Below are positions 27,604 to 31,005 of a stretch of DNA of 64,000 nt, piece after piece. The translations under genes and the position numbers were made by a program. The notes below the pieces were generated by a model. The model was given only the letters and a program-made list of their open reading frames with translations, was not told the DNA's origin and searched no databases. Every line of letters begins with the position of its first letter. The stretch's first letter is position 1. The stretch is from Thermoleophilia bacterium (lineage in GTDB: Bacteria; Actinomycetota; Thermoleophilia; Solirubrobacterales; 70-9). The stretch is taken from the NCBI GenBank assembly GCA_016650125.1, contig JAENWT010000004.1, positions 124,001 through 188,000 on the forward strand. Direction: 5' to 3'.

Positions 27604-29166
27604 ATGGAGCGGAAGCTCGTACTGGCCTACGTCGATTCGCTGCGGACCGACATGCTCAAACAGGCGATCTCCGAGGGTCGCGCCCCGACCTTCGGCCGCC
27701 TGATCAAACGCGGAGTCCTGGTCGAGGACTGCGTTTCCTCGTTTCCTTCGGTGACTCCGGTCGCTTCGGCCGAGATGGTGACGGGCGTCGCCGCCGACCA
27801 GCACTGGATCAGCGGCATGAACTGGTACCACCGGGTCGAACAGCGTTACGTCGAGTACGGATCCTCGCTCGAGGCCTCGCGGGCATTCGGCATCTTCCGC
27901 TCCCTGCATGACCTCGTCTACAACATGAACATGGCCCACCTCAACCCGGGCATCGAGACGATTTTCGAGACCCTCGACGACCGGCAGCTGCGTACCGCGG
28001 CGACGCCGTTCCTGATCTACCGCGGCCGGCACCGCCATCAGGTGACCCTCCAGGGGCTGACCGGAAAGGCGATCGAATCCGGCCTGGTCAAGATGGACTA
28101 CGGTACCTGGGGGCCGAAGGAGCTCTTCTACGGCGACCTCTATTCCTCGATGCCGGTTCCCTGCAAGCCGAGCTCGGTCCCGGGCCGGCGTGACAGCTAC
28201 TCGGCCTGTTGTGCCGCCGAGCTCGTTTCACGGAACCGCTTCGACTTCCTGCTGCTCTCGTTCCCCGACAACGACAACTACTCGCACCGCCACGGGCCGT
28301 CGGCTTCGGTGAACTCGATCGAACGGGCCGACCTGTGCATGGCAGAGGTGATTCGGGCGGCCGGCGGCCTGGATGGCTTCCTCACGGACTACGCGCTGAT
28401 CCTGCTGGCCGATCACGCCCACACCGACGTCGAAAAGCCGCTTTCCCTGATCGAAGGCATGGCCGAGAAGTGGCATGTGCTGCAGCCGTCCGAGGATGAG
28501 CCCGACGCCGCCGAGCTGGCGGTCAGCCCGACTTCCCGCGCTGCGCACATCTACCTCCTGGACGAGCACGACAACCCGGTGCGCCACCGGCGGGTGCGGG
28601 AACACGCCGCGACGATTGACGGCATCGAGCTGCTGAGCTGGCTCGAACACGAAGACGGATCCCCGGTGATCCGCACCGGTCCCGGCCTGGGAGGCCAGGG
28701 CAAGCTCGTAGCGGTGGCTGAACGGGACAGCAGGCAGATCAGGTTCAGCCCGGCCGGAGAGGGTATCGACCTCGGTGAAACGGTCACCGACCGTCGTGAT
28801 AACGCGTGGACCGTCAGTGGGGACCTCGAAGCACTGGAGGCGTCGGTCGAAGCCGGAAGGATCGAAACGCCCGAGTACCCGGACGCGCTCGGCCGCCTGC
28901 ATTCGGCCCTTCAGGCGCCGCACGCCGGCGACCTGATGGTCAGCGCCACGCTCGGCTACGAGTGCCTCGACTGGGGCGGAACCGCGCACGTAGGAGGAGG
29001 AAGCCACGGCTCCCTGCGCAAAGAAGATTCAGAAGGCCCATTGCTCTTCGTCAACTGCGGCCCGAAGTCAGCGGACGAACGGGACCAGTGGGGACTGAAG
29101 GACGTGGTCCCTGTGATCAAAGAGTTCTATGGCGTCGAAGCCCAACCACGTACCGCTCACGGGTAG
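27604..29166 (+). CDS. Alkaline phosphatase-superfamily phosphodiesterase
   Basis: Type I phosphodiesterase/nucleotide pyrophosphatase-like protein of 520 residues. It begins at ATG 27604 (MERKLVLAYVDSLRTDML), where Asp of YVDSLR is the usual metal ligand. SVTPVASAEMVTG near residue 50 holds the nucleophile Ser/Thr region. FPDNDNYSHRHGP near 220 and LADHAHTDV near 270 supply further metal ligands. No signal peptide is visible, so it may be cytoplasmic. The last codons (QPRTAHG) and stop lie in the left arm of a 329-bp inverted-repeat element, so the native C-terminus may have been replaced. Substrate unknown. Confidence 0.8.
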   Translation: MERKLVLAYVDSLRTDMLKQAISEGRAPTFGRLIKRGVLVEDCVSSFPSVTPVASAEMVTGVAADQHWISGMNWYHRVEQRYVEYGSSLEASRAFGIFRSLHDLVYNMNMAHLNPGIETIFETLDDRQLRTAATPFLIYRGRHRHQVTLQGLTGKAIESGLVKMDYGTWGPKELFYGDLYSSMPVPCKPSSVPGRRDSYSACCAAELVSRNRFDFLLLSFPDNDNYSHRHGPSASVNSIERADLCMAEVIRAAGGLDGFLTDYALILLADHAHTDVEKPLSLIEGMAEKWHVLQPSEDEPDAAELAVSPTSRAAHIYLLDEHDNPVRHRRVREHAATIDGIELLSWLEHEDGSPVIRTGPGLGGQGKLVAVAERDSRQIRFSPAGEGIDLGETVTDRRDNAWTVSGDLEALEASVEAGRIETPEYPDALGRLHSALQAPHAGDLMVSATLGYECLDWGGTAHVGGGSHGSLRKEDSEGPLLFVNCGPKSADERDQWGLKDVVPVIKEFYGVEAQPRTAHG

Positions 29167-29470
29167 GCAACCCAAGTCTTTAAACATGGATGTCCCGCAA
29201 GGGACCATCCCTGCCTTATGCAGAAGTCAGCGAGACTCGAATAGCGCGAAACCAACCGGCTGTTCGATTAATTGGATTCGCGCGCCATTGCGGTAGTCCA
29301 ACAATCGGTCTACCGCGGGGGGCGGGCAAAAACTGAATTAGGAGAACGAGCCTTCAGAGTTTTGCCCTGTCGGAGTCTCGCTGCGCTTTGCATAAGGCAC
29401 CGAATTTGCCTTCGGGCAAATCCGGTGTTTGCTGCAGTGAGAGGCCTACCCGTGAGCGGTACGTGGTTGG
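29142..29470. ncRNA. Nested inverted-repeat element, candidate structured RNA
   Basis: Outer arms of 27 bp (29142-29168 and 29444-29470) are perfect inverted copies. Inside, a second pair (29212-29238 and 29373-29399) matches in two 11-bp blocks. Local hairpins lie at 29188-29210 (loop GCAA), 29244-29283 (GCGCGAA-CCAA/TTGG-TTCGCGC), 29290-29316 (GCGGTAG/CTACCGC), 29324-29367 (GGGCAAAA/TTTTGCCC) and 29398-29427 (loop TTCG). No convincing gene is present. The arrangement would give a closing stem, a second stem and a three-hairpin junction. I see no RNase P, tmRNA or SRP RNA signatures. A fold-back transposon is the alternative. Confidence 0.55.
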
Positions 29471-29506
29471 CCTTGGGTTACTTCGGGCTCAGGTAAGGTC
29501 CGACGC

Positions 29507-30283
29507 GTGAATATTTTGTTCATCGGCGATGTCGTTGGAAGTGCGGGCCGTAAAGGCCTTGCGGCCGTCATGCCCGGGTTGAAGGAGAAATACGAGCCCG
29601 ATCTCACCATCGTCAACGGGGAGAACGCGGCCGGGGGGATGGGCATCACCGAGAAGACCGCTCGCAACATCTTCGACAACGGTGCCGACGTGATCACCCT
29701 CGGCAACCATACGTATCGCCATCGCGACGCTTACGATTTCCTCGATCAGGCCGAACGGGTGATCCGTCCTTCGAACTATCGCAAGGGCAATCCCGGCAAG
29801 GGTCATTTGATCGTCGAAGCCGGTGATATGACCGTCGCGGTGATCAACCTGAGTGGCACCGTCGGGCTGCGTGCGGCGCACTCGCCGTTCGACGAAGCCG
29901 ACGCACTCCTGGCCGACCTGGATGGCAAGGCCGACGCGGTCTTCGTCGACTTCCACGCCGAGGTCACCAGTGAAAAGGTCGCGCTCGGCTGGTACCTCGA
30001 TGGCCGGGTCGCCGCGGTCTGCGGAACCCACACCCATGTGCCCACCGCCGACGGCCGGGTGCTGCCTGGCGGCACCGCCTTCATCAGTGACGTCGGCATG
30101 ACCGGGGCCCGCGACAGCGTGCTCGGGGTCAAGAAGGAACAGGCGATCGAACGCATGCGGACCGAGATGCCGGTCCGGTTCGAGTCCGCCACCGAAGACG
30201 TCTGGGTCATGGGCGCGGCGATCGTGGTCAACGCGGCGGGCCTCGCTGATTCGATCGAGCCATTCCTTGTGCCCGCCGGTTGA
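29507..30283 (+). CDS. ymdB: YmdB-family metallophosphoesterase
   Basis: Calcineurin-like phosphodiesterase of the TIGR00282/YmdB family, some members of which hydrolyse 2',3'-cyclic nucleotides. The 258-residue sequence has FIGDVVGSAGRKGL at the start, VNGENAAGGMGIT near residue 37, ITLGNHTYRH near 63, FVDFHAEVTSEK near 146 and CGTHTHVPTADGRVLPGG near 170. All expected metal ligands (D, N, H) are in place. GTG at 29507 follows the structured element by 36 bases. The ABC ATPase gene overlaps its stop. Confidence 0.92.
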   Translation: MNILFIGDVVGSAGRKGLAAVMPGLKEKYEPDLTIVNGENAAGGMGITEKTARNIFDNGADVITLGNHTYRHRDAYDFLDQAERVIRPSNYRKGNPGKGHLIVEAGDMTVAVINLSGTVGLRAAHSPFDEADALLADLDGKADAVFVDFHAEVTSEKVALGWYLDGRVAAVCGTHTHVPTADGRVLPGGTAFISDVGMTGARDSVLGVKKEQAIERMRTEMPVRFESATEDVWVMGAAIVVNAAGLADSIEPFLVPAG

Positions 30284-31005
30284 TGGCTGACGCTCCGAAG
30301 CAGGCGCTGACCGCCTCCGGCATCGTTAAGCGCTTCGGCGACCGCGAGGCCCTGCGTGACATCGCCTTCGGAGTCGGCGCCGGCGAGGTGGTGGCGGTGA
30401 TCGGCCCGAACGGGGCCGGCAAGACGACGCTGCTCTCGATTCTGGCCGGCATCTCCGCGCCCGACCAGGGATCGGTTCAGGCCGAAGGCGGCGGGGTCGG
30501 GTGGGTGCCACAGCAGGCGGCGATCTACCGGCGGCTCACGGTCACCGAGAACCTGCTGCTCTTCGCCCGGCTCCAGGGCCACGCCGATCCGCAAGCGAAG
30601 GTCGAGGAGATGCTCGAGCTGACCGGCCTCGCCGAGCGGCGGGGCGACCAGGCGGGCAAGCTCTCGGGCGGCAACCAGCAGCGCATCAACATCGCGATCG
30701 GCCTGATGGCCGACCCGTCGGTGATGTTGCTCGACGAGCCGAGCGTCGGGCTCGACCCGGCCCAGCGGGCACGGCTCTGGCAGTTCATCCTCGGGCTGGT
30801 CTCCTCCGGCACGGCGGTCGTATTCTCGACCCACGACATCCAGGAGGCCGAGCGTTACGCCGAGCGCATCTTCGTCGTCGCCGACGGCAGTGGGATCTTT
30901 GACGGCACCGCGGCCGAGCTGCGCGACGCGGTCGTCACGCCGAACGGCTCCGGAGTCGACCTCGAGTCCTCCTTCCTCGCCTTCCTCAAGAAAGCCGGCC
31001 ACTGA
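30283..31005 (+). CDS. ABC exporter ATP-binding protein
   Basis: ATPase of an ABC-2 type exporter, 240 residues. Walker A GPNGAGKTT lies near residue 39, the signature is the LSGGNQQR variant near 128, Walker B VMLLDEPSVGLD near 147 and the switch FSTHDIQEAER near 184. I chose ATG at 30283, which shares one base with the ymdB stop. The membrane partner follows with a one-base overlap. Substrate unknown; possibilities include lipids or peptides. Confidence 0.92.
   Translation: MADAPKQALTASGIVKRFGDREALRDIAFGVGAGEVVAVIGPNGAGKTTLLSILAGISAPDQGSVQAEGGGVGWVPQQAAIYRRLTVTENLLLFARLQGHADPQAKVEEMLELTGLAERRGDQAGKLSGGNQQRINIAIGLMADPSVMLLDEPSVGLDPAQRARLWQFILGLVSSGTAVVFSTHDIQEAERYAERIFVVADGSGIFDGTAAELRDAVVTPNGSGVDLESSFLAFLKKAGH

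What the first reader, a model, noticed from the sequence alone, without database searches (positions are those of the whole stretch)
29142..29470. 329-bp nested inverted-repeat element that could be a large structured RNA
A perfect 27-bp outer inverted repeat encloses a second inverted repeat and at least five local hairpins, including stems capped by GCAA and TTCG loops. Folded, this gives a closing helix, a second helix and a multi-hairpin junction with little unpaired sequence, and no protein is encoded. The left arm carries the last codons and stop of the upstream gene, so the element may have inserted there. It resembles no RNA I can name (not RNase P, tmRNA, SRP or 6S).
Basis: seen in the sequence. 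Interest (0 to 1): 0.75.

Follow-up and report, generated by a model that had tools for sequence, protein, structure and literature searches.

The report
Two back-to-back dispersed palindromic repeats
The 329-base structure is not a one-off RNA gene: it is two copies, placed back to back, of a hairpin-rich DNA repeat found at about 41 places in this one bacterium's genome and in none of 231 other genomes of its order, a new family of a known kind of bacterial repeat.

Summary
The reading as one large structured RNA does not hold. The stretch is two ~165-bp units of a dispersed repeat family, joined head to head and about 70% identical to each other. A covariance model of the unit finds 41 places in this 2.83-Mb genome (Solirubrobacterales by its relatives), 15 of them full length, and none in 231 other genomes of the order, 17 congeners included. 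The "perfect" outer stem is simply the family's conserved end module, present in both units; solo units fold far less strikingly (mean z about -3). Units are modular (A-B-C, with B repeated or ends exchanged), hairpin B is kept by compensatory changes, copies sit beside gene 3' ends, and IS30-family insertions abut them. This is most like BOX or BIME elements. No target-site duplication, REP (Y1) transposase or reverse transcriptase was found, so the mobiliser is unknown. New family of a known kind; modest interest.

The parts
29138..29474 (.). Whole feature: two ~165-bp units of one dispersed repeat family, head to head (A ends inside, C ends outside)
29142..29303 (-). Left unit, full length, read on the minus strand
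   Evidence: model R1 hit G000:C4:153142-153302 minus, 143.2 bits, E 1.6e-31
29304..29470 (+). Right unit, full length, read on the plus strand
   Evidence: model R1 hit G000:C4:153304-153470 plus, 164.8 bits, E 1.0e-36
29142..29168 (-). C-end module of left unit (reads GCCTACCCGTGAGCGGTACGTGGTTGG on the minus strand); on the plus strand it also codes for the last 7 codons and stop of the upstream gene
   Evidence: 16 places in the genome with up to 3 mismatches, control 0
29444..29470 (+). C-end module of right unit, GCCTACCCGTGAGCGGTACGTGGTTGG
29304..29324 (+). A-start module of right unit, ATCGGTCTACCGCGGGGGGCG
   Evidence: 34 places with up to 3 mismatches, control 0
29324..29367 (+). Hairpin A of right unit (GGGCAAAA...TTTTGCCC)
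29244..29284 (-). Hairpin A of left unit (GCGCGAATCC...GGTTTCGCGC on the unit strand), changed on both sides relative to the family
29398..29427 (+). Hairpin B of right unit, TTCG loop
29186..29214 (-). Hairpin B of left unit; the GCAA loop on the plus strand reads TTGC on the unit strand
27604..29166 (+). Upstream gene, type I phosphodiesterase/nucleotide pyrophosphatase family; 3' end lies in the repeat
   Evidence: PF01663 E 5e-23
29507..30283 (+). Downstream gene, YmdB-like metallophosphoesterase (TIGR00282), flipped in orientation relative to all named relatives that hold both genes

Best explanation
Window 29138-29474 is two abutting, inverted units of a species-restricted, non-autonomous, modular palindromic repeat family. 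SHOWN: a ~165-bp unit (A start, hairpin A, hairpin B, C end) recurs at about 41 places, whole, truncated or with modules exchanged or repeated; stems are preserved although sequences drift; full-length copies lie between genes, often directly at gene 3' ends; IS30-family insertions sit beside several copies. INFERRED: the units spread as DNA by an enzyme acting in trans that recognises the hairpins or end modules, persist where insertion is harmless (downstream of stop codons), and diversify by recombination between modules. Where transcribed, single units would form multi-hairpin 3' or 5' untranslated structures that could stop or stabilise transcripts, a side effect rather than a dedicated RNA gene. 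In the window, the second unit came to lie next to the first in opposite orientation, giving the large closing helix.
For: DNA search of own genome: 61 local matches, most to one ~165-bp half of the element. Model R1 from 15 units: 41 places at E <= 1e-3 in own genome, 0 in 17 congeners, 0 in the other 231 genomes searched in the order. Left and right halves align over their length at about 70% with the C end identical. C-end pattern 16 places, A-start pattern 34, reversed-pattern controls 0. Modular copies: tandem B modules on C26, C8, C32 and C5, alternative ends after B. Stem constraint: hairpin B own halves -18.2 vs swapped -9.7 kcal/mol, 0 of 20000 permutations; whole structure 92.9% paired vs 36-52% when slid, 8 pairs changed on both sides, 0 of 500 shuffles. 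Solo units fold with mean z -3.0 and -2.6 on the two strands, against -15.7 for the pair. Gene context: at the 14 full-length loci nine gene 3' ends but one gene start lie within 30 bp (my count; binomial P 0.011). Four of five IS30-family transposase places lie within 140 bp of a unit.
Against: No target-site duplication signal (mean 4.15 vs 4.05 in mismatched flanks). No Y1/REP transposase (PF01797) and no reverse transcriptase (PF00078) in a 95%-complete genome, so no mobiliser is identified and movement itself is inferred from copy number and from relatives that lack the family. No orthologous empty site alignable at nucleotide level was available. Gene calls around copies come from a simple codon-score ORF caller.
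Confidence: 0.9

Rival explanations
1. A dedicated large structured non-coding RNA of ~330 nt, closed by the 27-bp helix.
For: Very stable fold, compensatory changes in stems of the units, no ORF.
Against: The pair is unique to this locus; 13 other full-length units are solitary. The outer helix is the family's C-end module twice. The units are nearly as foldable on the other strand. No Rfam family, no promoter-like site (a poor test for this phylum).
Confidence: 0.04
2. A classical MITE: non-autonomous transposon with terminal inverted repeats moved by a DDE transposase and leaving target-site duplications; the window element would be one MITE with 31-bp TIRs.
For: The window pair has 31-bp outer inverted repeats and many dispersed relatives.
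Against: Other copies carry the C end on one side only; the A start and C end share just a short inverted TACCGC core. No duplication signal. IS30 ends read here (TCA..CGTCAACGCAAC) do not resemble the unit ends.
Confidence: 0.12
3. REP/BIME system: palindromes mobilised by a REP-associated tyrosine transposase (RAYT).
For: Palindromic, extragenic, mosaic, both orientations, associated with insertion sequences, species-specific, as described for REPs (PMC2817692, PMC1525189).
Against: No PF01797 protein in own genome (with positive controls). A unit of 165 bp is far longer than 20-40 bp REPs.
Confidence: 0.1
4. A host-useful element: bidirectional transcription terminator or 3'-end RNA stabiliser kept by selection at gene ends.
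For: Position at gene 3' ends, stems kept by compensatory changes, fold on both strands.
Against: Only one weak terminator-like site, no more than shuffles give; absent from all relatives searched, so not needed at these genes; the same placement is expected from insertion tolerance.
Confidence: 0.2

Closest known systems
BOX elements of Streptococcus pneumoniae (A-Bn-C modules; PMC3049150)
   Same: Modular start-middle-end build with variable numbers of the middle module; BOX ranges 67-637 bp; hairpin-rich if transcribed; proliferated within a species; over-represented between convergent genes; no transposase of its own.
   Different: No sequence relation was tested; host and element are GC-rich here; BOX is reported to have TIRs and to cause target duplications, while here no duplication was detected.
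REP/BIME elements with RAYT (PMC2817692)
   Same: Extragenic palindromes in both orientations, species-specific, mosaic.
   Different: REPs are 20-40 bp (PMC3733652); a RAYT-type transposase was not found in this genome.
REPs as targets of insertion sequences (PMC1525189)
   Same: Insertion sequences lie in or beside the palindromes; that survey's table lists IS1655 of Neisseria meningitidis as partly REP-associated (that IS1655 is an IS30-family element is my own knowledge).
   Different: Here the repeat is another family and the host another phylum; only five IS30-type places.
Correia elements, ERIC, Rickettsia palindromic elements
   Same: Palindromic repeats of the 100-160-bp class; Rickettsia elements can lie inside genes (own knowledge; Correia size and 26-bp inverted repeats as cited in PMC3049150).
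   Different: No sequence comparison was made; module structure differs.

Membership tests
Dispersed modular palindromic repeat (BOX/BIME-like kind) | Many dispersed, non-coding copies in one genome | tested here: met
   41 places, 15 full length
Dispersed modular palindromic repeat (BOX/BIME-like kind) | Recombined or repeated modules | tested here: met
   Truncated units, tandem B modules, alternative ends
Dispersed modular palindromic repeat (BOX/BIME-like kind) | Extragenic placement | tested here: met
   Full-length units intergenic or overlapping only gene ends, one doubtful ORF at L138 excepted
BOX element proper | boxA/boxB/boxC sequence homology | not tested
   No BOX sequence was compared; kinship not claimed
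MITE | Terminal inverted repeats on each copy | tested here: not met
   Only the window pair has long ones; solo units share just TACCGC/GCGGTA
MITE | Target-site duplication | tested here: not met
   4.15 vs control 4.05; boundaries uncertain by a few bases
MITE | Matching autonomous transposon in the genome | tested here: inconclusive
   IS30 ends do not match; other transposase families were not searched
REP/BIME with RAYT | Y1 transposase gene in genome | tested here: not met
   PF01797: none, control genomes ring; genome 95% complete
REP/BIME with RAYT | 20-40-bp palindrome unit | tested here: not met
   Unit ~165 bp
   41 places in one genome, none in relatives
   Needs RNA-seq or a northern blot
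Known Rfam family | Covariance-model match above gathering score | tested here: not met
   Only two tRNAs in the window; nothing in the element at E <= 1

The most novel reading that the evidence does not exclude
The family spreads by a route not yet described for bacterial palindromic repeats: structure-guided movement of single-stranded hairpin DNA by a recombinase other than a Y1 transposase, without target duplication, the compensatory changes being kept because the enzyme reads the folded strand; in the same process it can flip neighbouring genes, as at the YmdB-like gene here.
Probability: 0.08. Interest if true: 0.65.

Novelty: new member of a known kind. Interest (0 to 1): 0.27.

Why it matters
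It removes a false candidate for a new large RNA and shows how two inverted repeat copies can imitate one. It adds a new modular palindromic repeat family in an uncultured actinobacterial order, lacking the transposase expected for REPs, with stems kept by compensatory changes. What moves such repeats is an open question, and this genome is a case where the usual answer was not found.

Tried and rejected
Rfam at gathering and relaxed thresholds: nothing in the element. Phage and plasmid collections: no match. RAYT-type (Y1) transposase and reverse transcriptase: not found. Target duplications: none above control. A first hairpin-A swap test mixed both orientations and is invalid (hairpin A part); redone in one orientation it gives only a weak effect (504 of 20000). 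G-U preference as a sign of RNA: 19 vs 8 G-U pairs on the unit strand vs the other for hairpin B, but on 18 related sequences, so not used (the hairpin A counts there come from the mixed set). L120 looked like a near sister (91% over part of one protein), but its other genes are 66-81% identical, so it gives no close empty site; its genome gave no match. An automatic alignment of hairpin B was misregistered for the shorter types and replaced by the half-swap test. A crude count of perfect hairpins per 100 kb did not separate this genome from congeners.

Full report
OBSERVATION. Outer arms pair perfectly over 27 bp and over 31 bp with one mismatch; an inner pair of 65-nt arms is 71% complementary. 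The GCAA and TTCG hairpins are there. As RNA the 329 nt fold to -190.5 kcal/mol, z -15.7. No ORF of 80 aa or more lies inside it, no Rfam family matches it, and the left arm carries the last seven codons and the stop of the upstream gene.

WHAT IT IS. Searching the genome in which the window lies (2.83 Mb, 41 contigs, 95% complete) with this DNA gave 61 local matches, almost all to one half of the element. The two halves are homologous: the left half, reverse-complemented, aligns with the right over its whole length (69%, 73% over the best part; alignment). So the element is two units of about 165 bp, head to head. Fifteen full-length units, 13 of them solitary, align without difficulty. A covariance model built from them (R1) finds 41 places in this genome at E <= 1e-3, none in 17 congeners and none among the 231 other genomes searched in the order (stricter filters). 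Relatives named by a protein search are Solirubrobacterales metagenome-assembled genomes.

ANATOMY OF A UNIT. Read from the A end: ATCGGTCTACCGCGGG..., hairpin A (GGGCAAAA...TTTTGCCC), a linker (often GAGTCTCGCTGAG), hairpin B inside AAGGC...GTTT, and the C end GCCTACCCGTGAGCGGTACGTGGTTGG. TACCGC near the A end pairs with GCGGTA in the C end, closing the unit. The 'perfect 27-bp closing helix' of the window is this conserved C end present once on each side; its core occurs 16 times in the genome with up to three mismatches, and the reversed pattern never. The A start occurs 34 times. Many places hold only part of a unit, B modules in tandem (C26, C8, C32, C5), or another end after B: a mosaic.

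IS THE STRUCTURE KEPT? Yes, at the level of the unit. Hairpin B comes in at least 18 sequence versions; its own halves give -18.2 kcal/mol on average, halves swapped between versions -9.7, and 0 of 20000 permutations reach the observed total. Over the whole consensus structure 92.9% of cells pair, against 36-52% when partners are slid; 8 pairs have changes on both sides; 0 of 500 shuffles match the covariation score. These are related copies in one genome, so this shows constraint on the palindrome, not on RNA as such. Solo units fold moderately well on both strands, mean z -3.0 and -2.6; the window's two units alone score -3.6 and -1.8. The -15.7 of the pair is mostly one unit pairing with the other.

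WHERE COPIES SIT. With a simple codon-score gene caller, the 14 full-length loci (counting the window pair as one) have nine gene 3' ends but only one gene start within 30 bp of the element (my count; P 0.011 by a two-way binomial); several sit flush with a stop codon or supply it. This matches BOX elements, which are over-represented between convergent genes (PMC3049150), and can be read as tolerance of insertion.

MOBILITY. No target-site duplication stands out. No Y1/REP transposase and no reverse transcriptase was found in the genome. An IS30-family transposase (NF033563) occurs at five places, four of them within 140 bp of a unit (P about 5e-5 even if only an assumed 12% intergenic space is counted); contigs C17 and C27 begin in what looks like the same kind of insertion next to a unit. 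The IS30 ends do not resemble the unit ends, so IS30 looks like a guest of the repeat, as known for other insertion sequences and REPs (PMC1525189), not its motor. The mobiliser remains unknown.

THE LOCUS. In every named relative that holds both genes, the upstream phosphodiesterase gene and the YmdB-like gene converge (nucleotide view of one, without the element). In the window the YmdB-like gene alone is flipped to co-direction, its stop overlapping the start of the next gene, and its leader GGTAAGGTCCGACGCGTGAA still resembles the relative's GGTAGGGTCAGACCGGTGAA. The repeat pair lies at the left end of the flipped gene. Whether the repeats caused the flip is not shown: no unit lies at the right end.

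COMPARISON. It works like, and has the general anatomy of, modular palindromic repeats such as BOX and BIMEs. It is not shown to be a member of either named family: BOX homology was not tested, the REP transposase was not found, and the MITE criteria tested here were not met. I file it as a new family of that general kind.

VERDICT. Ordinary in kind, new as a family; interest 0.27.

Noticed in passing
window 29475-30285: The YmdB-like gene alone is inverted relative to all named relatives that hold both genes, with a TGATG stop/start overlap to the next gene at one end and the repeat pair at the other.
   Followed up: partly
G000:C13:55164, C8:132765, C1:245010, C26:4 (L165, L167-L169): IS30-family insertions lie beside units of the repeat at four of five places.
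   Followed up: yes
L166 (G000:C2:98620-99705): The fifth IS30-type copy, with one in-frame stop, sits between GCCGAACTGGGTCGGTT and AACCGACCCAGTTCG, another palindromic sequence that also recurs beside some units (L037, L043, L067).
   Followed up: partly
L029, L034, L039, L061, L066 flanks: A second short palindromic repeat, GTTCTTTGCCGCGTT...AACGCGGCAAAGAAC, and a third around GAGATCCCGAAAGTC...CTTTCGGGATCTCGG (L138, L147), often lie next to units.
   Followed up: no
L226-L235 (congener G014, C1:1-200000): An unrelated palindrome family, TTCTGGAGCCGATTGTGG...CGGCTCCAGAA, often in pairs about 70 bp apart: at least one congener has its own family.
   Followed up: partly
G000 contig ends C5, C16, C17, C20, C26, C27, C37: Several contigs begin or end in or near the repeat, so the true copy number is probably above 41.
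   Followed up: no
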